Of a DNA stretch of 64,000 nt, positions 24,970 to 49,634 are shown piece after piece. The position numbers and the translations under genes are program-made. Source of the DNA: Nitrospira sp. CG24A (GTDB lineage Bacteria > Nitrospirota > Nitrospiria > Nitrospirales > Nitrospiraceae); the NCBI GenBank assembly GCA_002869925.2, contig NEWT02000032.1, forward strand, positions 908 through 64,907, in the 5' to 3' direction. The notes under the pieces are model-generated. The model made no database searches, was not told where the DNA came from, and worked only from the letters and a program-made list of their open reading frames with translations. The first letter of the stretch is position 1. The number at the start of each line of letters is the position of its first letter.

Positions 24970-26604
24970 ATGCGGGTATTTCTCATCCACGTTCGCGACC
25001 CACAGTTCTACGCCCTCCCGGCGAAAACACGCGCAAAGAACGGCCGAATCCGAGTGATGGGCTTTCCGCCCATCGGCATCATGTCTCTCTCGTCGGTGCT
25101 CAAACAGGCTGGCCATGAGTGTGTGATGTTCGATCAGGCGAACCCTGATACGCCGAACGAGGTGATTCTCGATGAAATCAACCGACAACAACCGGCCCTG
25201 GTCGGCCTCAGTTTCCTCAGCACCACCAGCTATCCCTACGCGAAGATCCTGGCTCGTCAGATTCGCGCTGCGAACTCAAAGGTGAAGCTGGCCTTTGGCG
25301 GCGTCTTTGCGAGTTTGAATGCCGCGTTGGTTAAGTTGCAGTGCCCTGAAGTGGATTTCATCTGCAAGGGTGATGGTGAACAGTTGGTCCTTGATCTGCT
25401 TGAACGGTTTGATGATCCAGCTGATGTCGCCGGGCTGACCTGGGCTAAGGACGGTAGGGTCGTGCAGAATCCAGGACGCCCGATGGAGCGTCATCTCGAT
25501 CAGTGGCCGTTCCCCGATCGCGAAGGCCTTCCGCTCGATTTTATCGAGTCGATGCCGCTCGATGTGCCCGCCGTGCTCTCGATGGAGCGGTTCACGACGA
25601 TGCAAACATCCCGCGGCTGCCCATGGCCCTGCGTGTTTTGCGACATTCCAATCTTCAATGAAGGCAAATGGCGCGCGCGGAGTGCTCAGCATGTGGTGCG
25701 TGAACTCAAGTACCTCGAAGAATGCGGCTACGGGTCCGTCTATTTTGTCGACGACCATTTTCTGCTCCAACCTAAGCGAATTGAGGCGATTTGCCAAGGT
25801 GTCATGGACGAGAAGCTCTCGATCCAGTGGGGCATCGAAGGGCGCGTAGACTCGGTGGCCCAGCATTTATTTCCTGCCATGGCCAAGGCCCATTGCCGGA
25901 CGGTCATGTTCGGAATTGAAAGCGGGAGTCAGAAGATTCTGGATCGCCTCAAAAAAGAACAGACGTTGGAGGAAGTGGCCACCGCAGTCAAGAATGCCAA
26001 GGCGGCCGGTATCGAGATCGTGCATGGCTTCTTCACCGTGGGCAATCCCGATGAAACGGTCGAAGATATGAACGCGACATTCGACCTAGCCTCCAAGCTG
26101 CCGCTCGACACGTTCGGCTTCAATCGACTCTGTGTGTATCGGGGAACTCCACTTTGGCAGGAATACGTGAAGCGTGGGCTCGTCAGCGAAACCACCGATT
26201 GGTACAAGTATTTCAAATGTTCCACGATCGATCCAACCTGCTTGCCAGGAGAAGTGATCAACGAGGTCCGCCGTCAAGGGCTCAAGCGCCTGTTCGTGTA
26301 CAAGCTTCTGCACTACCCCATCCAGACGTTCAGGTTGCTGCGGCGATTTCTCCGCTTCATGCCGGCGCGAGATGTGGCCTACATTATCATCAAGCCGTTC
26401 CTGGGAAAAAATAAAGGCGCCACAAAGGCAGAGGTGCTTTCGCGGGCGGTCGAACATGGCCAGATTAAAGATGCTGCGGCGGAGTTGACACAGATGACGG
26501 ATGAAATGCTCCACAGCGTGATGGAGGAGTCGCGGCTGGAACGGCTACGCATCCAACAAGAAGCGGAAGGGTCGCGCGAGTTGCCGATGGTCCAAAGCCG
26601 CTAG
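24970..26604 (+). CDS. B12-binding-domain radical SAM protein
   Basis: The 544-residue enzyme has an N-terminal cobalamin-binding-like Rossmann domain (residues 1-150, with GFPPIGIMSLSSVLKQAGHE). A radical SAM barrel follows, with Cys217, Cys221 and Cys224 in SRGCPWPCVFC. The C-terminal 150 residues are basic and helical. The cobalamin-domain motif DxHxxG is not obvious, so cobalamin use is uncertain. This class includes hopanoid, magnesium-protoporphyrin and bacteriochlorophyll methylases and cyclases, and no substrate can be assigned. It starts 172 bases after the rTCA terminator with only a weak ribosome-binding site, so it is probably its own unit. Confidence 0.8.
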   Translation: MRVFLIHVRDPQFYALPAKTRAKNGRIRVMGFPPIGIMSLSSVLKQAGHECVMFDQANPDTPNEVILDEINRQQPALVGLSFLSTTSYPYAKILARQIRAANSKVKLAFGGVFASLNAALVKLQCPEVDFICKGDGEQLVLDLLERFDDPADVAGLTWAKDGRVVQNPGRPMERHLDQWPFPDREGLPLDFIESMPLDVPAVLSMERFTTMQTSRGCPWPCVFCDIPIFNEGKWRARSAQHVVRELKYLEECGYGSVYFVDDHFLLQPKRIEAICQGVMDEKLSIQWGIEGRVDSVAQHLFPAMAKAHCRTVMFGIESGSQKILDRLKKEQTLEEVATAVKNAKAAGIEIVHGFFTVGNPDETVEDMNATFDLASKLPLDTFGFNRLCVYRGTPLWQEYVKRGLVSETTDWYKYFKCSTIDPTCLPGEVINEVRRQGLKRLFVYKLLHYPIQTFRLLRRFLRFMPARDVAYIIIKPFLGKNKGATKAEVLSRAVEHGQIKDAAAELTQMTDEMLHSVMEESRLERLRIQQEAEGSRELPMVQSR

Positions 26605-29270: not shown

Positions 29271-29544
29271 AAGAAACCTCTGATCCACGCGATATCAGCA
29301 TCCATCCCACTCTACCACACCTTGAGTCAATCACAATCAGCGTATGGACTGGAAAATCAGCATGCCTCTGTTTGCAATCTTGCTCAGCGGACTGACAGTA
29401 TTTCCCAGAAGTTTTCGGAACGAATGAGTATGTCATGATGAACGCGACGGCGAAGTGCTCTTGGGTCTATGGTAATAGGAGGAGGCGTTGACTTGTTCTG
29501 CTGACGGGTGGCCCTTCTCAGCGTGATCAGCTTGCCTGGGAACA

Positions 29545-29913
29545 GTCCAGCTCATCGATCTCACTCATGCCTTCGGAGGCACGATTGTATGGCTGACTGC
29601 ATAGAGCCTTCAGGTCATTGCCCGGGAGGCAGCGGAGACGCTGGGCAGGTATTATTACGCTTCGAATCGCCTGGAAATGGCTGAACATGGGAGTGCCTGC
29701 ATGATGCGCCCACTTACTTTGCTATGGGTGGGTAGACACTGGATCAGATACCGATCGAACACTTGGTTGGGGCTGGTGTCCGAATCGACGTGACAACCCA
29801 ATGTGCGCGTAATCGGAATTGCCTCGTCACGATTCAAGATTTCGAACGATGGGAATCAGCGCATGGGCTGATTCCAAACAGGTCGATTGTGTTACGCCAC
29901 TGTGCGAGATTCA
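29545..29913 (+). pseudogene. Decayed cyclase-family (kynurenine formamidase-like) gene
   Basis: Several frames on the plus strand together spell parts of a cyclase/kynurenine-formamidase protein. They are LIDLTHAFGGTIVW (29551 on), then after a stop GRYYYASNRLEMAEHG. After a frameshift near 29690 come LHDAPTYFAMGG, another stop, and TLDQIPIEHLVGAGVRIDV ending ...FERWESAHGLIPNRSIV. The metal-binding H-G-T-H-x-D-A-P site is damaged between EHG and LHDAP. It cannot make a full protein. It sits head-to-head with the IDO-like gene, which suggests a former tryptophan-to-kynurenine pair. Confidence 0.65.
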
Positions 29914-29975
29914 GACACTGAGCCAGAGGCCCAGAGACATTGCTTTTGATGAAACTGTGAGACTATATTCCCCAA

Positions 29976-30818
29976 ATGGCTCAATCTAAGCACGTGCAAG
30001 TGCTGTCCGCTGCGACCCTTCGCCTTCTGCGTCCATTGGTGAGGATCCTGCTCCGGAACAATATCTCGCATAGAACGTTCGCCGAACTTGCCAAGCTGGT
30101 GTATGCAGAGGTTGCGAACGCTGAGTTCGGAATCGCGGGTAAGAAACAAACAATCTCGAGGATTGCCATTCTCACTGGATTGACGCGCAAGGAAGTGCAA
30201 CGGTTATTGGCGCAACCACCCGGGACCCGATCCATTATGGAGGAAGAGTATCATCGGGCTTCGCGGGTCATCACGGGATGGGTGCGAGACTCTGAATTCG
30301 GAGATGGGAAGGGGCATCCGCATCCACTGCGCATGGAAGGGAAGCGTGCATCATTCAGTGCGTTGGTCAAACGCTACAGTGGAGACATCCCTGTGCGAGC
30401 GATGTTGGATGAGTTGCTGCGAGTCGGAGCCGTTAAACACTTGAAAGATGGACGGACTTGTCTCCTCTCGCGCGGGTATATTCCGCTGAAGGGTCCGGTT
30501 GAGAAATTGCATGTCCTCGGAACAGACACCGCCGACCTCATTGCAACCATCGACCATAACATGTATCAAAAACCATCCAAGCCCCGTTTCCAACGTAAGG
30601 TCATGTACGACAACGTGCCCGTCGAGGTGGCGAAAGAATTTCAGGTCCTCGCCGCCGCGCAGGGCCAGGAATTGTTGGAGGCGATCGACCGTTGGCTTTC
30701 GCATCGAGATCGTGATGTGAATCCCGCCGCGAAGGGGACTGGTCGCGTGCGTGTGGGGCTCGGAATTTATCAGTTTGAGGAACAACTGGATTCAGATCGG
30801 AAAGATTCACGATCATGA
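29976..30818 (+). CDS. DUF6502 family protein
   Basis: The 280-residue protein matches the DUF6502 family. It has a basic N-terminal helix (LSAATLRLLRPLVRILLR), then TFAELAKLVYAEVA and ISRIAILTGLTRKEVQRLL, which has the shape of a helix-turn-helix. A middle region follows (HPLRMEGKRASFSALVKRY), then a C-terminal helical stretch. The HTH suggests a regulator, but no function is established to my knowledge. The last four bases overlap the DUF5666 gene (ATGA), so the two are translationally coupled. Confidence 0.7.
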   Translation: MAQSKHVQVLSAATLRLLRPLVRILLRNNISHRTFAELAKLVYAEVANAEFGIAGKKQTISRIAILTGLTRKEVQRLLAQPPGTRSIMEEEYHRASRVITGWVRDSEFGDGKGHPHPLRMEGKRASFSALVKRYSGDIPVRAMLDELLRVGAVKHLKDGRTCLLSRGYIPLKGPVEKLHVLGTDTADLIATIDHNMYQKPSKPRFQRKVMYDNVPVEVAKEFQVLAAAQGQELLEAIDRWLSHRDRDVNPAAKGTGRVRVGLGIYQFEEQLDSDRKDSRS

Positions 30819-31831
30819 ACCGAACGTCTGGCCAGAATGTTCTTGCCATTCTGGCCCTGTTCTTGGCGCTCGCGTCGTGCGGCCCCAGCCCGCAAGCGGG
30901 CGGGGGTATCGGTGGCACAGGGAACACGGCGACGGTGGTCTCTGCCCCAATCACCGGATTTGGGAGCGTATTTGTCTCTGGAGACGAGTACGAGACTGGC
31001 CATACGTCGATGATGGTCGATAGGAAACCTGGCAGCCAAAGCGATCTCAAGAAAGGGATGATGGTGCGTGTCAACGCCACGTTGACTAAACGCTATGATA
31101 CAAACGAGACACTTGAACGCACGGCGAATACGCTGCTGTACGAAGATACGATTGAGGGGGTTGTGCAATCGGTGGCCTCGGATGGATCCAGGCTGATGGT
31201 CTTAGGTCAGACCGTCACGATCACGCCGACGACCACCCTGGATACCAGTATCCCAGGAAGTAATGTGCTGAGACTCGTGCCCGGTCGAGACCTCGTGGAG
31301 ATCAGCGGGTTCGTCACAGGAGACGGGATGATTACGGCGACATTTGTTGGCTTGAAAACGTTTGACATGAAAACCGAAACGCCTGACTATCAGGTCAAGG
31401 GGCTCATTAAAAACCATAAGGTGACTCAAAAAACCTTCGAGATCGGTGCTCTGACCGTCGACTATCGCGATGCGGTGTTGAACGATATGCCAGGTCAGCT
31501 AAACGAGCTTTGGGACGGTCTGCTGGTTGACGTGGATGGCAAGCAGGTGTCATCAGGTGGGGCAGGCCTATCCGGCGTTCGCATGACCGCAACGCTGGTA
31601 TGGCCGGAAGGATTAGGCTCCGAAGATAGCGAGTACACCAATATTGAAGGATTCGTGACCCAGGTGTTCGGTCCGGGCGAGTTCTCCATCGGCAACGTGC
31701 GTGTATTGACAAATGCCGATACCATGGTTGAAGGCGGAGCCCTGAGCGACATCAAGGTCGGCGCTCACCTAGAGGTGCATGGCCCACTGATTGCCGGTAT
31801 TGTGAATGCGACGAAAGTGGAGTTTGAGTGA
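30815..31831 (+). CDS. DUF5666 domain lipoprotein
   Basis: The 338-residue product has a signal peptide with a lipobox (LALASCG, Cys at about residue 23). A glycine-rich stretch (GGGIGGTG) is followed by ITGFGSVFVSGDEYE, the usual opening of DUF5666 proteins. At least three small beta-barrel (OB-like) repeats follow, seen as KKGMMVRVNATL, VEISGFVTGDGMITA and LEVHGPLIAGIVNATKVE. The repeats may bind ligands in the periplasm or on the outer membrane. It starts inside the stop of the DUF6502 gene. Function unknown. Confidence 0.72.
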   Translation: MNRTSGQNVLAILALFLALASCGPSPQAGGGIGGTGNTATVVSAPITGFGSVFVSGDEYETGHTSMMVDRKPGSQSDLKKGMMVRVNATLTKRYDTNETLERTANTLLYEDTIEGVVQSVASDGSRLMVLGQTVTITPTTTLDTSIPGSNVLRLVPGRDLVEISGFVTGDGMITATFVGLKTFDMKTETPDYQVKGLIKNHKVTQKTFEIGALTVDYRDAVLNDMPGQLNELWDGLLVDVDGKQVSSGGAGLSGVRMTATLVWPEGLGSEDSEYTNIEGFVTQVFGPGEFSIGNVRVLTNADTMVEGGALSDIKVGAHLEVHGPLIAGIVNATKVEFE

Positions 31832-32235
31832 GAGATGGAACGTCACGCGACTGTGCCCCGATCAATTCGAACGACAGCACCCTAACGTTGACAGGCTTGG
31901 GATGTTTCACGGCCAGGGAAACCGACGCCTTCTCGCCGATCTCCGAGTCGGGGACCACCTTTGAGGTTGTATTGCCATCTTGACCGAAGAAGTGGCGCGG
32001 AGTAACCCCAAGTCCACCCCTTTGGGGCAGAGATTGATCATCTCTGCCGCAGATCCAATTGTCGTTCTGCTTGGAGCGTCTATCGATACGTCGTCGATCT
32101 CTGATGGCGGATGTAGAGGACGTGATGGAGTGACTGGGAGAAAGGCCTTCTTTGCCGACCTCTCAAGTGGGCAAGAACGTTATCCTCCACGATAACCCAT
32201 CAGGCAAATGAATCGTGACTGGGAACGCTCACCGT
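31832..32235. other. Gene-free spacer
   Basis: I see no convincing gene in these 404 bases. A minus-strand frame spells a protein-like stretch (SKVVPDSEIGEKASVSLAV, about 31850-31980), but no start or family could be assigned. It may be a remnant. Confidence 0.4.
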
Positions 32236-33174
32236 TTAGGGCACAGTCTTCCGCTGAGGCGAGGTAGATTGGCGCTTCTTCGTTTTTTCTGCTTCTACCT
32301 CAAGCTCAGCGAGTCGGCGCTGCATCGCGTGCATATCTTCCTTCAAGGCATCGAGTTCTGCAGCTTGGTTCATAACCAGGGCTTTGACAGCGCGCATCTC
32401 TTCGTCCTGTGTCGCCTGCGCCTCCTGAGAGATAATAGCGCCGTTGGCCGATTTCATGGATGAAGGGGTATCCTGAGAAACGGCGGTTGGGGAATCTGAA
32501 TACAGTGGTTGAGACTGTCCTGGCGCCGACGAAGATGTCTTCACCCCGGTGGCCAGCAGGCCATAGTCGATGACGAGTGTGGCCAGGGGAGGTGGATTCA
32601 GCAAGTCAGGCTGTTCATTGAGGCTCGACCGCCTCGTTGTTTCTGGAACAAACCCGATCTGGCGTGGCTCCAACCCTCTCGGATTACGAGCCTGACGATC
32701 CAGTTTCGCGCCAGAATTTCCTCTTCCTATACTCGCACGATAGTGGGTGAGTGCGAGATGCAGCAACCGTCCCTGCACGTAGAGCACCCCGCCGGTGGTC
32801 TCACGCCCCGCATCCGTGCCGCGGAGAATGCGAAATCCGACGAGCTGGCCGTTCATTGCTTTGGACAGAGCGGTACTCATCAGTGGGCTGAGGAATCCAG
32901 TATCCTCATCGGAAAACACCCGCATCGCAGTGGTCGTGTCGTTCGGCAGGACCTGAACCTGTACACCACGAAGCACGTGCGTGAGCACCACGGGACTCAC
33001 GAACACTGGATGGGCCGTCTTGAACCATGAATCCTCCACACTTTGGAGAGACACCGCGCCTCGTGGACCATCAGCAAAAACTGTATCCACAGTCTTGTGA
33101 GAAGTGGCGCATGCACTGACAAGCAGGCACACCGCACTCGCGAGGGCTGCAAGACTGAATCGAGTTCTTTTCAT
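32236..33174 (-). CDS. Putative lipoprotein with C-terminal coiled coil
   Basis: The 312-residue product has a lipoprotein signal (MKRTRFSLAALASAV then CLLVSAC, Cys at about residue 22). I start at the second ATG because the charged KRTR fits a signal n-region. The middle part is poorly conserved in appearance and Pro/Ser-rich around residue 190-230. The last 55 residues (QAAELDALKEDMHAMQRRLA and ELEVEAEKTKKR) form a likely coiled coil. It is not recognised as a known family. The next gene upstream on this strand, the cytochrome-porin, ends 162 bases away. Confidence 0.65.
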   Translation of the reverse strand: MKRTRFSLAALASAVCLLVSACATSHKTVDTVFADGPRGAVSLQSVEDSWFKTAHPVFVSPVVLTHVLRGVQVQVLPNDTTTAMRVFSDEDTGFLSPLMSTALSKAMNGQLVGFRILRGTDAGRETTGGVLYVQGRLLHLALTHYRASIGRGNSGAKLDRQARNPRGLEPRQIGFVPETTRRSSLNEQPDLLNPPPLATLVIDYGLLATGVKTSSSAPGQSQPLYSDSPTAVSQDTPSSMKSANGAIISQEAQATQDEEMRAVKALVMNQAAELDALKEDMHAMQRRLAELEVEAEKTKKRQSTSPQRKTVP

Positions 33175-33335
33175 GGGGCGCTGCAATGTAGAAGCCTTCG
33201 GCTATCGGGCACTGTACCACAACGCTCAGAAGATCGTGATTGAAAATGGATGCTGTGACCGGAGCCAGTTTTATGAGCCAACTCCGGTCCAGTAGAAACG
33301 AATCGTGGCGCACACGCCTCGTACGGAATTTCGAA

Positions 33336-34577
33336 TCAAAATGGGGTCACGAGGTAGATTCGTCCGTTCAAGGAATCCGGCGCAGGGGTGACCCCGATGG
33401 TTCCGCTATCGGTCACGCGCCATTCCGCCTGACAGTAGACGCTGGGGGTAATATTGTACCGCCCCATGACGGTCGTCCGACTGGCTGATTGGGCCAACTC
33501 CTGATCCAGGTGATCAAAGCGGGCCCCCAAGACCCACAGTCTGTTCGGAATGAACAGGACTTCCGCCATATAATTCTGGAGGGCTCGGTTGGTATCGTTG
33601 CCGGGAAACACGCCGACCGTATTCGGGAGCCCATCCGACCGGAAATATCCGACCGTGGTGATAAACGGTCCCAGCTTCACCTCCCCTGCGACCCCCCATT
33701 TGTTCACGCCCTTCTTATCATTTGGCGTGAACGGATCCAGCGTTGAATTGACCACATCGTGTTTGTAGATCAATCCAAGCGTATAGTTTTCAAGAAAGGT
33801 CATGGCGTAGGTCGCATAGAGGCCAGGATCTCCTAATCTGTTTTGGTCATTTAACCCGTGCGGTTGATAGAGCCCAATGGCATATCGATGGGTGATGTCG
33901 CCGGCCTCACTCCCCACAATTTGTCCGTTAAGCTCAGCGGCTGTGTTGTAGAATTCTGTCGCCTCGCTCACGTCACCAATCGTTCCTCTATTGCGAGCGC
34001 CGAGTATCCCAAGGGCTTCTTGGGCAAAATATCGCTGTGTAATCACCCGTTGTGAATGGGACAGAAAGGGCAGGGCGACGTCGAACGTGCCGACCTTGAG
34101 GTTGAGCAAACCATGGCCGACCTCCCCGATGAGATCGTTGATTTGGCCATAGGCCTGACCGAGCGCGACAGACTTTTCCACGAAGGTTGCGATGGCGTAG
34201 CTGGAGAACTTTCCCGTCTTCCCCAGTGGAGTCGCCGCATGGATCTTAAAGTCTTCGATCTTCAGCTTCGAACTCTGGGCACTCCCATCCTCCTTGTTGA
34301 ATTCCCCCGCGAGCGCGAGCCTCGCCGAGAGCGGGGTATGTTTCAGATCCTGGACGTCTTGCCACTCCTTGTCTTCTGGAAACCTGAATCCGTTCGTGCG
34401 AAAATTTTGCCCCACCTGATTGAGTTTGGGGATTGCATTGTGGCAGGTCGAACAGGATTTCTCCGTCTGTCGGCTGAACGCGGGAATCGCTTCCGCTGTC
34501 TTGGGGGTGATGATCGCCAACGCCCCTGAGACGGCAACGCTCAGCAGAATTGCACCCAATAAGACTCGTAGACGCAT
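33336..34577 (-). CDS. Fused monoheme cytochrome c-porin, Cyc2-like
   Basis: The 413-residue product has a signal peptide (residues 1-30, ending TAEA). A single heme motif Cys42-Ser-Thr-Cys45-His46 (KSCSTCHNAIPKLNQ) is followed by a long beta-rich C-terminal part ending in Phe (LVTPF), as outer-membrane barrels do. The opening IPAFSRQTEKSCSTCH, followed by FRTNGFRFP, resembles the N-terminus of Cyc2-type fused cytochrome-porins, which oxidise Fe(II) or accept external electrons at the cell surface. Length also fits. Membership in Cyc2 itself is unproven, because related porins with one CxxCH exist. It lies last in a three-gene minus-strand operon behind a monoheme cytochrome and a NapC/NrfH-type protein. 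Confidence 0.72.
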   Translation of the reverse strand: MRLRVLLGAILLSVAVSGALAIITPKTAEAIPAFSRQTEKSCSTCHNAIPKLNQVGQNFRTNGFRFPEDKEWQDVQDLKHTPLSARLALAGEFNKEDGSAQSSKLKIEDFKIHAATPLGKTGKFSSYAIATFVEKSVALGQAYGQINDLIGEVGHGLLNLKVGTFDVALPFLSHSQRVITQRYFAQEALGILGARNRGTIGDVSEATEFYNTAAELNGQIVGSEAGDITHRYAIGLYQPHGLNDQNRLGDPGLYATYAMTFLENYTLGLIYKHDVVNSTLDPFTPNDKKGVNKWGVAGEVKLGPFITTVGYFRSDGLPNTVGVFPGNDTNRALQNYMAEVLFIPNRLWVLGARFDHLDQELAQSASRTTVMGRYNITPSVYCQAEWRVTDSGTIGVTPAPDSLNGRIYLVTPF

Positions 34578-34604
34578 GACTGATTCCTTTTCTCCCTGAG
34601 GGTG

Positions 34605-35030
34605 TTACGGTGCGAATGATCGAATGTAATGCACCAGTTTCCAGACCTGCTCTTCCGTGAGCTTTTTCTTATATCCTTCCATCTCTGTGGTGTCTGGATC
34701 GCTCCCGTTCAAGGTAATCCAGAACAGTTGCCCATCCGGTATTTTCTCCATCACGCTCTTGTCCGTATAATCTCTCGGTTTCACATCCATCCCCTTGGTG
34801 CCGGAGCCCTTTCCATTCCCGGTGGCGCCATGGCATTTGATGCACTTGTCTTTATAGATAGTCGTGGCCTCTTGCAGCACCTCGGGGGTCAGTAGCACAG
34901 GATTCTTCATTTTCAAGACGTCCTCCGGTGCGGTTGGAGTCTTGCGTTCGGCAGCAAGAATGGATCCCGAATGACCTAGGATCGAGAGGCACAGTACACA
35001 GAGGCCCACACTAGTTAGTTTCATTGTCAT
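34605..35030 (-). CDS. Periplasmic monoheme cytochrome c
   Basis: The 141-residue protein has a signal peptide (MTMKLTSVGL then LSILGHSGS, cut near residue 26) and one heme site Cys63-Ile-Lys-Cys66-His67, with a Met ligand probably in DTTEMEGYKKKL. I place the start at the ATG with an AGGAGAAAGGAAAC site; the longer upstream frame is not used. It overlaps the stop of the NapC-like gene by 20 bases and precedes the cytochrome-porin gene by 27. A soluble electron shuttle between the inner-membrane and outer-membrane proteins is the simplest reading. Confidence 0.85.
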   Translation of the reverse strand: MTMKLTSVGLCVLCLSILGHSGSILAAERKTPTAPEDVLKMKNPVLLTPEVLQEATTIYKDKCIKCHGATGNGKGSGTKGMDVKPRDYTDKSVMEKIPDGQLFWITLNGSDPDTTEMEGYKKKLTEEQVWKLVHYIRSFAP

Positions 35031-35709
35031 GTTTCCTTTCTCCTGCATCCGCAATTCTGGTGCTCTTTCCCTCAGTGTGAGACGGTTCTGTCTTGTCCGG
35101 TGCGGCAGAGGCTTGTTTCTGTTTACCTTCATCCATTTCATCCCAGGGAATTTCGCCATGCACCAGGTTGTAGTGGCACTTGATGCAGGTGGTCCCGGCT
35201 TTCTGGGCACGGTCATGGGACTTGATCGGACGGGTAAAATTCTCATAGGCATGGCAAGTCCGGCACTGAGCACTATCATTCTTCAGGAAATCGGCCCTGA
35301 CCTTTTGTGCTAACTCGGGGCGCCTGGCTTCATAGTCCTCCTTCGTGTTTACCGGGTTCACCACTTCACTGTAGACATCGTGCAAGGCCAGCATCTTGAC
35401 CTGGAGATAGTCGGCGATGGGGTGAGGCACATGGCAGCTCGGACACCCCACTTGCACTCCACTACCATTTTGAAAATGCCGCGATGCCTTCGTCACTTCC
35501 CATAAATGGGTCATGCTGTGACAGGAGATGCAAAACTCGGTGCTATCGGTCGCCTTCATACCCAGCAGCGGCGCGGCCCCCACGAGCATCCCGCCGGCAA
35601 AGACGCCGATCACGCTGAGGGAAATGAATCCGGCGATCGTCCGTCGACGAGTCTTTCCGCGCTCCACCGCTGGTGTGGGTGCGTGCGTGTCGTCTGGGTG
35701 AGATTTCAT
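35011..35709 (-). CDS. NapC/NirT/NrfH-type tetraheme cytochrome c
   Basis: The 232-residue protein has one N-terminal membrane helix (about residues 24-45) and four CxxCH hemes starting at Cys60, Cys89, Cys149 and Cys175. That pattern is the quinol-dehydrogenase NapC/NrfH family, which carries electrons between the quinone pool and periplasmic cytochromes. The C-terminal 50 residues are a charged, low-complexity tail. I use the ATG at 35709 because GGAGG lies upstream; a longer frame extends to 35931. It heads the operon with the monoheme cytochrome and the cytochrome-porin. Confidence 0.83.
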   Translation of the reverse strand: MKSHPDDTHAPTPAVERGKTRRRTIAGFISLSVIGVFAGGMLVGAAPLLGMKATDSTEFCISCHSMTHLWEVTKASRHFQNGSGVQVGCPSCHVPHPIADYLQVKMLALHDVYSEVVNPVNTKEDYEARRPELAQKVRADFLKNDSAQCRTCHAYENFTRPIKSHDRAQKAGTTCIKCHYNLVHGEIPWDEMDEGKQKQASAAPDKTEPSHTEGKSTRIADAGERKHDNETN

Positions 35710-36220
35710 TGAGTCAATCCTCCGTATGGCTGCAAGTTCTAAGATGCTGCTTGTGGTGTTCTGCTCGCCACAGCACATTGGGTCCGGGTCACACCTGTTT
35801 GGGAGCGCACGCGATGAGCTGGCTAGGAATTCGACGACACCAAATTCAGCAGGTCTGATCTGTCGTATAAACTCCAGCGGATCCAGTACGTCAGGCGTTG
35901 GTGCACGCGCTGCCGTTCCAGGATTCTCCAATGAACGTACATATCGTTCGTCTATATTTTTGGATCCGTGTCCGGTTGTTCCTGACCGGCACCCGCATTA
36001 TTTTTCTATTGCCGCATTGATTCCAAGGCAAAGCAAGCGACATGCCACAACATGAGGAAGAGCCGGAATTATTGCTTTCATGAGTATTCTGACCTACTCA
36101 CACCCTAACTCCTCGCCCTCAAGGAGCGCGCCACTACGAAGGGAAATTTATATGCCATTCGAAGCCAAGCGCTTCAACCGCTTGATTTCATGTTGATCGT
36201 GGCGTGAAGGTCGCAGCCAT
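35710..36220. other. Gene-free spacer upstream of the cytochrome operon
   Basis: No convincing gene in about 510 bases. Its position before the NapC-like gene makes it the likely promoter region, but I cannot point to a clear -35/-10 pair. A first, partial copy of the repeat GGGAAATTTATAT occurs at about 36141, just before the tandem array. Confidence 0.4.
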
Positions 36221-36224
36221 CAGT

Positions 36225-36845
36225 GGGAAATATATCCCAATATCATCCAGGAGGGATCCTGTCACTGCGAAGGGAAATTAATACAGGGGGAAAATTAATA
36301 CACCAACGAGCAGGCTACTAATAATTTTCGCAGCACGGTGCGTATGATGATTCGCTGCGCAGGGGAAAAGCGCTGTGTTCATTGATGATTCGACCGGCGA
36401 ACATCTTTTTTTCATAAATGGGAAATATGTCCCAATAGCATATGTGGTGAGCGCGTCGCAGTGAAGGGAAATTAATACAGGGGGAAAATTAATACACCAA
36501 CGAGGTGTCTGCTGATAATTGTCGCGATGCGGTCCGTGTGATGATTCGCTCTGCGGGAGAAAAGCTGCGTGTCCATTGACGATCAGGCTGGAGAGAGTCA
36601 TATTTTTGCGAATGGGAAATAGTTCCCAATTATAATTTCGAGGAGCACGCCGTGACGTAGGGAAGCTAATACAGTAGGGAAGTTAATACAGTGGGGAGGT
36701 TCATGCAGAAGGGAAATTATGCATCGGCTCGCAGTGTCCTGAAAAATGTCGCAGGCGATGTATATGATGATTCTCTATGCGTAGGAAGAACGGCGGACCC
36801 AATATGTGCGGAACGTTTGACGATCAGGGAGGTATTTGTCTAATT
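36225..36845. repeat. Three tandem ~195-bp repeat units with palindromic and short direct repeats
   Basis: Units start at 36225, 36420 and 36614 with GGGAAAT, giving periods of 195 and 194 bases; the third is more diverged and ends about 36845. Each unit opens with a GGGAxxxxxxTCCC palindrome (for example TGGGAAATATGTCCCA). Each then carries short direct repeats of the type AGGGAAATTAATACAG: two per unit in units 1 and 2, four degenerate ones in unit 3. A GATGATTCGCT-like block comes next. No coding frame spans the units. The array looks like a multi-site protein-binding region or an old non-coding element. Confidence 0.75.
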
Positions 36846-36917
36846 GGCTAGAGCAACGGGTCGCCGCTTGACAGCCGTTCCAGGCAATCTGTCGTGCTCT
36901 AGGTTTGGCAGGGTTTG

Positions 36918-37260
36918 CGTCTGACGACGCGGCGTAGGAACGACGACCTGTACGAAGAATCTCGATCGGTTGCTGCACATCGAGATCGTGCTTCTGTTGT
37001 CGGCGAGCATGCTTCCATCGATGGTACGCTGATTGAGGCATGTCCTGGTCACAAAGGCTTCCAGTCGAAGAACGATGAAGATGGTGACGGGGAGAATTTC
37101 TATGACACACAAGAACAGCACGTATGAACGCACGACCGGTCCCGACAGCTGCCTCTACCGTATGAGCAAGGGCAAGAGGCCAAACATTGCTACATGGGTC
37201 ACGCGATACCATTGTTTTCCCATCGTTTCCGTGAACTGGAGGAGCGGGATTCGAAGGGAA
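36918..37260 (+). pseudogene. IS5-family transposase remnant
   Basis: The plus strand spells damaged pieces of an IS5-type transposase. They are HASIDGTLIEACPGHKGFQ (the second Asp-containing strand of the DDE site, usually VDGTLIEAW), then NSTYERTTGPDSCLYRMSKGK in one frame and KHCYMGHA in the next. The N-terminal and C-terminal thirds and the terminal inverted repeats are not recognisable. It is an old, dead insertion next to the tandem array. Confidence 0.6.
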
Positions 37261-37389
37261 GGGTATGCGGTGAATAGCTTATAACTCTGGGCGAAGCGGA
37301 GCGTGGGAAGCAAGGGGAGGATCGTTTCTCCTCATCGGGGAAATCAGGTCTCAGTGGAAACGACGTGGCCGATACCTATCGTTTACCTA

Positions 37390-37557
37390 AAGATGCTCAA
37401 AATGGCATCCCAGCAAGGCCGCAGTCCAATTACCGTTTATCAAGGGGTGGCTGGGATGATCCCAACTGCGCGCGTCCAACGAGGGTCTTCTGAGACCGCG
37501 CGTTGCGCGAGCAAGGAGATCATCCTAGCTACCTCGCTCCATTATTCAGCATCCTGT
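37390..37557. repeat. Dispersed inverted-repeat element (GCAGGATGC type), diverged copy
   Basis: The left end AAGATGCTCAAAATGGC and the right end ATTCAGCATCCTG match the ends of the copies at 43496, 46996 and 49439. Internal pairing (GCTGGGATGATCCC with the complement near 37520-37535) is present. The right end reaches the stop of the ZorB-like gene. Confidence 0.5.
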
Positions 37558-38234
37558 CAGAGGGGGTAGGTTGATCGTTCGACTCGATGCCGTTGCTCGG
37601 CAGAGCGTAGGCGAATTTTGAAGATCACCCGGCGGCTTTTTTCACGGTTCACGGTGGCAACGGGGGCATAGATCAGGTCTTGTTTGCCGCGTCCGGACGC
37701 TGAGGCGATGTCTTGAAAGCATTGGTATGCTGTCGGCTCTGTGGCTTGAATGATCTCCAACCCCTTCACCATCACTGCGAGCGACCGTTCCTGACTGAGT
37801 TTCAAATTAAACGCATCGCTGCCTTGATCATCGGTGTGTCCCTCGATGGCCAGCGAGTCGATCTTATCACGCAGCGGTCCGCACAATGCCCCGATATAGA
37901 AAGGCAATGCCTCCTCAAGAAAACGATCTGCAGTAGGCGACAGGGTACTTCTTCCGAACTCAAAGGTCAGCCGGTCTTCCGGGACCACGATCGCCAGCGC
38001 GAGCGGGTCTCGGGGATCTGCATCGAGCGAGAGGCCTAATCGTTGAATGTGGTCGCGTAGAGTGCTCTGCACATCCTCTTTGTTTACTTGTAGTTCAGAT
38101 TGTGCTGCGGAGGAGGTTTTGGTGATCTGCGCTGCGAAGAGCAGGATGAATACGATGGCGAGCGAGGTCATGAGATCGGTGATGCCGATGGTCGTGTGCG
38201 AGGCGCCGAAGGTCTGGGGTGTTGCGCGTCTCAT
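37557..38234 (-). CDS. ZorB-like OmpA/MotB peptidoglycan-binding protein
   Basis: The 225-residue protein has a short cytoplasmic N-terminus and one membrane helix (ITDLMTSLAIVFILLFAAQ). Asp20 in the DLMT motif corresponds to the ion-binding Asp of MotB and ZorB. An OmpA-like domain follows, with DSLAIEGHTDDQGSDAFNLK and LSQERSLAVM. The start is the ATG overlapping the stop of the upstream ZorA-like gene (ATGA); a longer frame from 38276 runs inside that gene. With the proton channel it would form a peptidoglycan-anchored rotary motor, as in the Zorya defence system. No ZorC, ZorD or ZorE gene lies beside it, and ordinary MotB or TolR-like roles remain possible. Confidence 0.72.
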   Translation of the reverse strand: MRRATPQTFGASHTTIGITDLMTSLAIVFILLFAAQITKTSSAAQSELQVNKEDVQSTLRDHIQRLGLSLDADPRDPLALAIVVPEDRLTFEFGRSTLSPTADRFLEEALPFYIGALCGPLRDKIDSLAIEGHTDDQGSDAFNLKLSQERSLAVMVKGLEIIQATEPTAYQCFQDIASASGRGKQDLIYAPVATVNREKSRRVIFKIRLRSAEQRHRVERSTYPL

Positions 38235-39460
38235 GCGGTCGGCCGTTGGGTGGACCGTAACGATCGTTTTGGCCAAAAGCGAAACCCTTCAGGGCCTGTG
38301 ATGGAGGACAATAGCCGCTGCTCAGCAAGCTTGCCCGTCAGGCGGCCCATGAGGTTCGTGAGCGCCGTCGTTTCTTGTGCCTGATGGAGGTGCGAATCTT
38401 TCAGAAGCGTGGTGAGTTCATGAATCGAGTCATTAAGCGCCTTCATCGGAGCGGCGAATTCTTCACGGAGAGCTCGGGGTAGTTCAGCCGCTATCTGTCG
38501 TCCTGCTGCTTGCTCGCCTTCCTTCCATTTCGTCAAAGACTGAACAGCTGTGGTCAGTTCAGCAATGGGCCCTGCCAGGCTCTCCGTACCCATACGCCCG
38601 GCATATTCCCTGAGGTCTCCGCCGGAGGCCTGTTGACCTCCCCTGGGCTCGCTTTGGGTCGGCGTGAGCTGCTCCAACATCTGCTCCATGGTTTTTCGGG
38701 GAAAGAGTTTGTCCATGAGGCCAAGAAATGTGTGGTGCGCCTTCATCAGGCGCGAGACCATCGGTTTTTCGATGAGCGTAAACAGATTGGCGGCAATCAG
38801 ACCGACGATGGACGTGAGGAATTTTCCTGCAAGCCCGTTAATGAGTCCCTGAATTCCGGCGATCTCCTGTCCATCGGCATGGAGCTTACTAAGGCCGATG
38901 AATAGAGCGAGGAATGTCAACAGCAACCCGATGCCGGTCACCAGGGACGGGAGTTGGCTGTAGGAGGCCAGGTTGACTCGATGGCTCAGTAGCGCGTCCT
39001 GCGTAAAGATATCTTCCGCTCTGCGTGTACAGAAAATGCGTGGCTCCACGAACCACGGGACATGCTCCAGGATCAGCGTCTTGCGGAATTGCGCCCAGAG
39101 CGGTAGGAACATCGGTTCCTTCTGCATGGCCTTGTCGAGTGTGGTCAGGTCGTCACAGTCGATACGGGTGGAGGAGGCTGTTGGCTGACTAGTCCGAGGC
39201 GTGAACCCTACGAGTGCACGACTTGTGAATCGCTCGTGATCGACATCGCCGCGCTCGCGAGCGAGAGTGGTCAGCATCGGCCATACTCGATCGAACGGCC
39301 GTTGCGCGCGGGATACCTCCCACGTCAACCGTATCACGTGCCAAAGAAAGAAGAGCACGATTCCAAAAGAGCCGAGCCAGCTCAGCATCGGGCTTTGGGG
39401 CCCTCCAAAAAATGCCGCATCACGACTTAAGAATTCCCACAGACTGGACATGCCGGTCAT
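38231..39460 (-). CDS. ZorA-like MotA/TolQ/ExbB proton channel protein
   Basis: The 409-residue protein has an N-terminal membrane helix (residues 25-45), a soluble loop, then two to three membrane helices in VNLASYSQLPSLVTGIGLLL and FLTSIVGLIAANLFTLIE. A cytoplasmic helical tail of about 170 residues follows (LAGPIAELTTAVQSLTKW and onward). This is the MotA/TolQ/ExbB plan with a long tail as in ZorA, though the tail is much shorter than in typical ZorA proteins. It overlaps the ZorB-like gene. The pair stands alone, 3.7 kb from the cytochrome operon. Confidence in the MotA-like fold is high and in a defence role low. Confidence 0.72.
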   Translation of the reverse strand: MTGMSSLWEFLSRDAAFFGGPQSPMLSWLGSFGIVLFFLWHVIRLTWEVSRAQRPFDRVWPMLTTLARERGDVDHERFTSRALVGFTPRTSQPTASSTRIDCDDLTTLDKAMQKEPMFLPLWAQFRKTLILEHVPWFVEPRIFCTRRAEDIFTQDALLSHRVNLASYSQLPSLVTGIGLLLTFLALFIGLSKLHADGQEIAGIQGLINGLAGKFLTSIVGLIAANLFTLIEKPMVSRLMKAHHTFLGLMDKLFPRKTMEQMLEQLTPTQSEPRGGQQASGGDLREYAGRMGTESLAGPIAELTTAVQSLTKWKEGEQAAGRQIAAELPRALREEFAAPMKALNDSIHELTTLLKDSHLHQAQETTALTNLMGRLTGKLAEQRLLSSITGPEGFRFWPKRSLRSTQRPTA

Positions 39461-39820
39461 TGTGTCCTCAGTTTCTACAAGACAAACTCATGTACGCTCC
39501 AACGCTAGGGATCGCCTTCTCAACTTCCGTGCCGCGCGCGACAGAGAAGGAAGTGCTCAAAAATCCAATGATCCCTGTGTTTGTTGGAGCCTACGCACCG
39601 GTTGCCCGGCAAAGAATGCCGACTCCATCGGCACATTCAGCCACGGTCAACAGGTTGCATTCTGATGGGAAGCGAAGAGCTAATGGCCGGGAGCCAAACG
39701 AAGACGGAGAGTTCCCGTTCCTATGGCAGATAGCATAGGGTCTAGGATTAGGGGCGGAGAACGATCTCTCGCTAGAGATAAGCCTGCACTAGAAAGCCCA
39801 GACTCCTTTTCCTCCAATCC
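39461..39820. other. Gene-free spacer
   Basis: The 360 bases between the ZorA-like gene and the next small gene hold only frames without start signals or recognisable content. The promoter of the ZorAB-like pair should lie at its left part. Confidence 0.4.
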
Positions 39821-43495: not shown

Positions 43496-43623
43496 TGCAG
43501 GATGCTCAAAATGGCATCCCAGCTAGGCCGCAGGGAGCTCGGCGACTGAAGCGTACCCTTGCGGTACGTTGCAGGGAGACGGGCGACTGAGAACGACGCT
43601 GGGGATCATTTTCAGCATTCCTG

Positions 43624-43624
<1 letters not shown>
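43496..43624. repeat. Dispersed inverted-repeat element (GCAGGATGC type)
   Basis: The left end GCAGGATGCTCAAAATGG and the right end TTTTCAGCATTCCTGC are inverted copies. Inside are GCGTACCC / GGTACGT-type pairings. The right end touches the ahcY stop. It is related to the copies at 37390, 46996 and 49439. Confidence 0.65.
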
Positions 43625-44937
<1,313 letters not shown>

Positions 44938-46459: not shown

Positions 46460-46996
46460 ATGAGGCACTGGATTGCTGCAATGATACTCTGCGTGATGAC
46501 CTCGTTTGTCGCCTTCGGTGGCGCGTCAGCGCAGGATATGTTCCCTGTCGCCGGGCGCCATGCGGTGAAGCTGGGTGAGCCGGCGCCGGACTTCCAGCTT
46601 CTAGATATGCAGGGACGCCTCGTGGCACTCTCGGACTTGCGCGGCAAAGTGGTGATGGTGAATTTTTGGGCCACCTGGTGTGGCCCCTGCCGGGTAGAAA
46701 TGCCGGCGATGGAAGCGCTCTATCAGACATTTTCGCGGAAGGACTTTGAAATTCTCGCGGTATCCACCGATGCACAGGGTATGACGGTGACGAGGCCGTT
46801 TCAACAAGAGAATCGTTTGACCTTCCCTATCCTTCATGATGCCGATTATCGCGTGGGATTGATCTATGGCGCTCGGAGCCTGCCGATGACCTTCATGGTG
46901 GACCGGCAAGGGGTTATCCGCCATCAGATCTTTGGCGCGCGTGACTGGGGAGCGGTTGAGGCGCAGCAGTTAGTGCAGATGTTAATGAAATCGTAG
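46460..46996 (+). CDS. TlpA/ResA-like thiol-disulfide oxidoreductase
   Basis: The 178-residue product has a signal peptide (MRHWIAAMILCVMTSFVAFG) and a thioredoxin fold with FWATWCGPCRVEMPAMEAL, redox cysteines in CGPC, and the cis-Pro near LPMTFMVD. This is the periplasmic TlpA/ResA/CcmG type. It probably reduces apocytochrome heme-binding cysteines, taking electrons from the CcdA protein encoded 216 bases downstream. That fits the cytochrome genes of this region. A good promoter lies upstream. Confidence 0.88.
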   Translation: MRHWIAAMILCVMTSFVAFGGASAQDMFPVAGRHAVKLGEPAPDFQLLDMQGRLVALSDLRGKVVMVNFWATWCGPCRVEMPAMEALYQTFSRKDFEILAVSTDAQGMTVTRPFQQENRLTFPILHDADYRVGLIYGARSLPMTFMVDRQGVIRHQIFGARDWGAVEAQQLVQMLMKS

Positions 46997-47119
46997 CAGG
47001 ATGCTGAAAAAGTCCGCCAGCATCGTTCTCGCATCGCTCAGATGCTCAACGTACCGAAGCGTACGCCTCGCCTCTTCGCTCGCTGTGGCCTTGCTGGGCG
47101 GACATTTTGAGCATCCTGC
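46996..47119. repeat. Dispersed inverted-repeat element (GCAGGATGC type)
   Basis: The left end GCAGGATGCTGAAAAAGTCC and the right end GACATTTTGAGCATCCTGC are inverted repeats. The element starts in the stop codon of the tlpA-like gene. In the middle, GTACCGAAGCGTAC can pair. Compare the copies at 37390, 43496 and 49439. Confidence 0.7.
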
Positions 47120-47212
47120 GATTTCTTTACCTATTGTTTCAGACCTGTGGGTCAGTGAAGTTCTGGTATACCGACGGAGTTTTCTCGAAGCCTTCTAGGA
47201 GCCTGTCAGACT

Positions 47213-49296: not shown

Positions 49297-49438
49297 GTCC
49301 ACCAATAACTTTCAGTGATCAGCTTTCAGTCTGAAGATATAACAAAGAAGTTGTTTCGGGGCGCGAGTGCGTGCTGGCAGCTGAATGCCGAAGAACCATC
49401 GTGACACAGTGGAAATTAATGGCCCACAGTAGATCTTG

Positions 49439-49630
49439 TAGGATGCTCAAAAAGCCCGTCCGGCAAGGCCTCAGGCGAGTCGAAACCGGAGGCGTACCCT
49501 CTGGGGCGCACGGTGCGACGAATAAGGAGCACCATGTCTGTGCGCGCCGCCGAGTTAGTGAGGCGGCCGGGTCCCCGTTGAGGATTTCGATAAGCCGAGA
49601 ACGAAGCTGGCGGGCTTTTTCAGCATCCTA
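49439..49630. repeat. Dispersed inverted-repeat element (GCAGGATGC type), long copy
   Basis: The ends TAGGATGCTCAAAAAGCCC and GGGCTTTTTCAGCATCCTA are near-perfect inverted copies, 192 bases apart. The right end lies next to the stop of the BamD-like gene (49635). The interior differs from that of the other copies, suggesting the ends are what is conserved. Confidence 0.7.
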
Positions 49631-49634
49631 CTGA

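What the first reader, a model, noticed from the sequence alone, without database searches (positions are those of the whole stretch)
36138..36845. Nested tandem array: ~195-bp units containing palindromes and 16-bp direct repeats
Three units begin with GGGAAAT and a GGGA...TCCC palindrome and contain repeats of AGGGAAATTAATACAG (two, two and four). One further half copy is at 36141. No coding frame or CRISPR-like spacing explains it. It lies upstream of the cytochrome operon and beside an IS5 remnant. It may be a binding array for a regulator or an iteron-like region from a former element.
Basis: seen in the sequence. Interest (0 to 1): 0.7.

Follow-up and report, generated by a model that had tools for sequence, protein, structure and literature searches.

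The report
Decayed tandem array from insertion-sequence end
A short run of about 195-base repeats in a Nitrospira-like bacterium appears to be the worn remains of a piece of DNA, including the front end of an old jumping gene, that was copied in tandem; it occurs only at this one spot and is most likely an ordinary genomic fossil.

Summary
The window holds two full 194-bp units (36261-36454 and 36455-36648, 74% identical), a fuller third copy from 36649 and a shortened copy at 36123-36260. The palindrome TGGGAAATANNTCCCA occurs three times and the 14-17-bp GGGAAATTAATACA repeat as 1+2+2+4 copies. Unit 3 runs straight into the IS5 remnant (36728-37204). I read the array as an old tandem duplication of a [palindrome - direct repeats - IS5 left end] junction, at the edge of a ~7-kb segment missing from the nearest relatives. 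No coding frame, RNA structure or further copy was found in this genome, its phylum, 84,980 species, viral contigs, plasmids or phages. One point stays open: the direct-repeat block is 100% identical between units 1 and 2 and the palindrome 89%, while the rest has drifted to 44-70%; short gene conversion or retained protein-binding sites would both fit. Low interest.

The parts
36123..36260 (+). Unit 0: truncated copy with one direct repeat (36138-36152, GAAGGGAAATTTATA) and its conserved left flank, 65 bp of unassigned sequence, palindrome A (36224-36239, TGGGAAATATATCCCA)
   Evidence: Repeat families D3, D5 and D6; alignment A1; model R1 hit at E=2.4e-4
36261..36454 (+). Unit 1 (194 bp): direct repeats at 36272-36285 and 36289-36302, decayed IS5 left end ~36309-36357, palindrome B (36419-36434)
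   Evidence: IS5 left-end profile E=3.8e-5
36455..36648 (+). Unit 2 (194 bp): direct repeats at 36466-36479 and 36483-36496, decayed IS5 left end ~36507-36588, palindrome C (36613-36628)
   Evidence: IS5 left-end profile E=5.4e-6
36269..36310 (+). 42-bp block identical to 36463-36504 while the rest of the units is 67% identical
   Evidence: permutation p=4e-5; Fisher p=7e-7
36649..36727 (+). Unit 3 front: four adjacent 17-bp direct repeats (36660-36727), ending at the IS5 terminal repeat
   Evidence: (period 17, 3.7 copies)
36728..37204 (+). IS5-family remnant: left terminal repeat and 5' half of the transposase gene, positions 1-705 of a 1292-bp element, internal deletion of about 166 bp, 77% identical to an intact copy; right half missing
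   Evidence: the intact copy's transposase passes NF033581

Best explanation
It is a decayed, locus-specific tandem duplication. An IS5-family element (about 1.29 kb in relatives, ends CTAGCAGTCTGCTGAAAAA) inserted next to AT-rich DNA carrying a short GGGAAAT palindrome and GGGAAATTAATACA repeats. The stretch from palindrome through direct repeats to about the first 100 bp of the IS was then duplicated in tandem, by replication slippage, unequal exchange or aberrant transposition at the IS end. That gave [pal-R-R-ISleft] x2 followed by [pal-R-R-R-R-IS remnant]. The 17-bp repeats expanded by slippage in the last unit. The element lost its right half and the copies drifted. Shown: the tandem structure, an IS5 left end inside units 1 and 2, colinearity of unit 3 with the IS remnant, and no relatives found elsewhere. 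Inferred: the order of events, the duplication mechanism, and lack of function.
For: Units match without gaps at offset 194. A nucleotide profile built from IS5 left ends of other genomes hits both units at the corresponding place (E=5.4e-6 and 3.8e-5); the best hit in 61 kb of control sequence is E=0.2. Hits of the array in other genomes are all left ends of this IS. The IS remnant starts where unit 3's repeats stop. Transposase family confirmed for an intact copy. In sister genome G028 the same IS remnant is joined directly to window position 29394, so the array lies at the edge of a variable segment. No RNA structure (z=+1.27), no Rfam family, no codon-like pattern of differences seen by eye between units 1 and 2. 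No copies elsewhere.
Against: Drift is very uneven. The 42-bp direct-repeat block is 42/42 identical between units 1 and 2 and the palindrome 17/19, against 44-53% just beside the palindrome and 70% in the IS part. Neutral decay alone does not predict that without local gene conversion. The source of the palindrome and direct-repeat sequence is unknown. Pairwise alignment of unit 2 with a single intact IS copy is only borderline (score 26; 1 of 500 shuffles reached it).
Confidence: 0.68

Rival explanations
1. A functional protein-binding array: a DNA-binding protein recognises GGGAAAT half-sites in the palindromes and direct repeats (regulator, or iteron-like initiator of a lost element), and selection keeps these sites while the DNA between them drifts.
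For: The palindrome is conserved beyond its flanks (Fisher p=0.003) and the direct-repeat block beyond the rest (p=7e-7); both share GGGAAAT; the four 17-bp repeats at 36660-36727 look iteron-like in size.
Against: The repeat occurs nowhere else in the genome at up to 1 mismatch, and the exact palindrome only in the array; hits with 1-2 mismatches are scattered. Absent from all relatives. No initiator among the neighbouring proteins searched. The units also carry IS5 end sequence. The array begins ~410 bp upstream of the NapC start.
Confidence: 0.13
2. The direct repeats are the multiple transposase-binding sites at the end of a second, lost transposon (IS21- or Tn7-like ends carry tandem sites and end in ...ACA/TGT..., from general knowledge), beside which the IS5 element landed; the junction was then duplicated.
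For: Repeats end in AATACA and are tandem at 17 bp. An IS21-type locus in a genus member (L105) shows tandem C-rich motifs upstream of its transposase gene.
Against: None of the IS21-type loci fetched from the genus carries this motif. No significant match in plasmids, phages or 84,980 species.
Confidence: 0.12
3. Assembly or chance artefact.
For: None specific.
Against: Units differ at 26% of positions, so a repeated assembly of one read stretch is excluded; the array lies inside a 91-kb contig; chance is excluded by shuffles.
Confidence: 0.02

Closest known systems
IS5-family insertion sequences (NCBIfam NF033581, transpos_IS5_4) and their remnants
   Same: Unit middles and the adjoining remnant carry the left terminal repeat and 5' end of this element.
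   Different: Here only left ends, tandemly repeated with non-IS sequence between them; no intact copy found in this genome.
Minisatellite within a MITE, e.g. BrickBuilt of Porphyromonas gingivalis (PMC4596501)
   Same: Tandem short repeats linked with transposable-element end sequences in an intergenic region.
   Different: BrickBuilt is a dispersed element (19 copies in one genome) with repeats between small inverted-repeat ends; this array is single-copy and has no right end.
IS21-family multiple terminal repeats / plasmid iterons
   Same: Tandem 17-bp motifs (resemblance from general knowledge).
   Different: No transposase or initiator gene of either kind found alongside; motif absent from the genus IS21-type loci examined.

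Membership tests
IS5-family element (remnant) | Left terminal inverted repeat homologous to intact copies | tested here: met
   unit 3/remnant 73-77% identical; units 1 and 2 by profile E<=3.8e-5
IS5-family element (remnant) | DDE transposase of IS5 type | tested here: met
   Intact homologue passes NF033581; in the window only the decayed 5' half remains
IS5-family element (remnant) | Matching right end with target-site duplication | tested here: not met
   No right terminal repeat near the array; alignment stops at IS position 705. Hence a remnant, not an element
MITE | Both terminal inverted repeats and dispersed copies in the genome | tested here: not met
   Single locus; only left ends seen
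Plasmid iteron origin | Replication initiator gene and AT-rich unwinding region next to tandem repeats | tested here: not met
   The eight neighbouring window proteins searched (29976-39460) contain no initiator family; the unwinding region was not tested
CRISPR array | Identical repeats with unique spacers of regular length | tested here: not met
   The sequence between repeats is itself repeated between units
Structured non-coding RNA | Stability above shuffled sequence, or an Rfam match | tested here: not met
   z=+1.27; no Rfam match

The most novel reading that the evidence does not exclude
The GGGAAAT palindromes and 17-bp direct repeats are retained binding sites of an undescribed DNA-binding protein (transposase end, initiator or regulator), kept or homogenised while the IS-derived DNA between them decays.
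Probability: 0.13. Interest if true: 0.4.

Novelty: new member of a known kind. Interest (0 to 1): 0.15.

Why it matters
It shows how an insertion-sequence end and its flank can turn into a short minisatellite-like array in a bacterial intergenic region, and it warns that nested palindromes and direct repeats beside an IS remnant need not be a regulatory array. It matters further only if the uneven conservation turns out to reflect bound protein.

Tried and rejected
Coding repeat: a 29-codon frame over the palindrome (GEHLFFINGKYVPI...) is broken in unit 2 and, by eye, unit differences are not concentrated at third positions. RNA structure. IS21-type end: no shared motif in genus IS21-type loci. 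Matches of the repeat pair in two Clostridia contigs and one viral contig lie in unrelated sequence. Plasmids: only insignificant hits, E 2-5; phages: none. Relation to the 120-200-bp MITE-like repeats elsewhere in the window: no blastn match with the array. Promoter scan: 4 against 1.9 expected, not informative.

Full report
Observation. The array is real and far beyond chance. Tandem Repeats Finder reports a 194-bp period over 36269-36630 and a 17-bp period over 36657-36719. Units 36261-36454 and 36455-36648 match without gaps at 144 of 194 positions. The best self-match over 190 bases is 141, against at most 75 in 40 dinucleotide-preserving shuffles. The palindrome TGGGAAATANNTCCCA occurs at 36224, 36419 and 36613. 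GGGAAATTAATACA-type repeats occur as 1, 2, 2 and 4 copies, and the first copy's conserved flank reaches back to 36123.

What the units contain. Searching 61 genomes with the array gave matches in two congeneric genomes, all to the last part of the interval. All of these are left ends of an insertion sequence starting CTAGCAGTCTGCTGAAAAA. In G023 they run to the ends of short contigs, as expected for a multi-copy repeat. Full-length copies of about 1292 bp with 22-bp terminal repeats occur in other family members, and the transposase of one belongs to the IS5 family (NF033581, 251 bits over a cut-off of 140). Window 36728-37204 is a remnant of this element: positions 1-705 with an internal deletion of about 166 bp, 77% identity over aligned bases, right half missing.

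IS left end in units 1 and 2. A profile built from left ends of thirteen loci in other genomes, none from this window, hits unit 1 at E=3.8e-5 and unit 2 at E=5.4e-6 at the corresponding place; the best hit in 61 kb of other window sequence has E=0.2 (E-values are for the sequence searched in each run, 620 bases for the array and 61 kb for the control, so by bit score the comparison is 13.8 and 11.1 against 5.5). Pairwise comparison with one intact copy gives a placement in the same part of the units with weaker support: unit 1 scores 30 against a shuffle maximum of 25, unit 2 scores 26 against 27. Each full unit is therefore palindrome, linker, two 17-bp repeats, then about 50-100 bp of decayed IS5 left end, and the third copy continues into the real remnant.

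Surroundings. To the right (37231-39776) the two closest relatives are about 94% identical. In G028 the same IS remnant is then joined directly to sequence matching window 29394; G007 resumes at 25097; G004 carries different sequence between window positions 29866 and 37559. The segment from about 29.9 to 37.0 kb, with the DUF6502, DUF5666 and cytochrome genes and the array, is thus specific to this genome among those compared, or was lost in the others. The NapC/NirT gene (35011-35712, minus strand) starts about 410 bp from the array.

Distribution. The 14-bp repeat at up to one mismatch is found only in the array in this genome. The repeat pair at up to three mismatches is absent from 394 other phylum genomes. 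A sequence profile of the palindrome-repeat segment hits only this locus among 175 family genomes. Pattern scans of 84,980 species and of viral contigs gave nothing related, and plasmid and phage searches nothing significant.

Mechanism. The simplest account is insertion of the IS5 element beside palindrome-repeat DNA, tandem duplication of the junction, expansion of the 17-bp repeats in the last unit, loss of the IS right half, and decay. The structure and the IS identity are shown; the order and means of duplication are inferred.

What remains unexplained. Conservation inside the units is uneven. Between units 1 and 2 the 42-bp direct-repeat block (36269-36310 against 36463-36504) is identical, the palindrome is 17/19, the IS part 70%, and the stretches beside the palindrome 53% and 44% (permutation p=4e-5 for the run; Fisher p=7e-7 for the block and 0.003 for the palindrome). 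The blocks were chosen after looking, so these p-values are optimistic. Short gene conversion between tandem copies or retained binding sites could both explain this; absence of the motif elsewhere argues mildly against a regulator with other targets. The source of the palindrome-repeat sequence is unknown.

Verdict. A real but single-copy, decayed, IS-derived tandem array. The binding-array reading is possible but has no independent support.

Noticed in passing
window 43498-43626, 46995-47121, 49428-49632: Three MITE-like repeats of about 120-200 bp with inverted ends (AGGATGCTGAAAAA or AGGATGCTCAAAAA) similar to repeats in sister genomes; the third is longer by an internal insertion.
   Followed up: partly
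window 29394-37231: About 7-kb segment with DUF6502, DUF5666, cytochrome c and NapC/NirT-type genes, absent at this place in the closest relatives; its NapC protein is only about 34% identical to those of congeners.
   Followed up: partly
L013 1501-1526 (G000:C31:307947-307972): A 26-bp perfect copy of the IS5 left terminus stands alone in this genome, in flanking sequence that in G028 (L003/L074) holds the same IS with its transposase gene: a possible near-complete loss of the IS.
   Followed up: no
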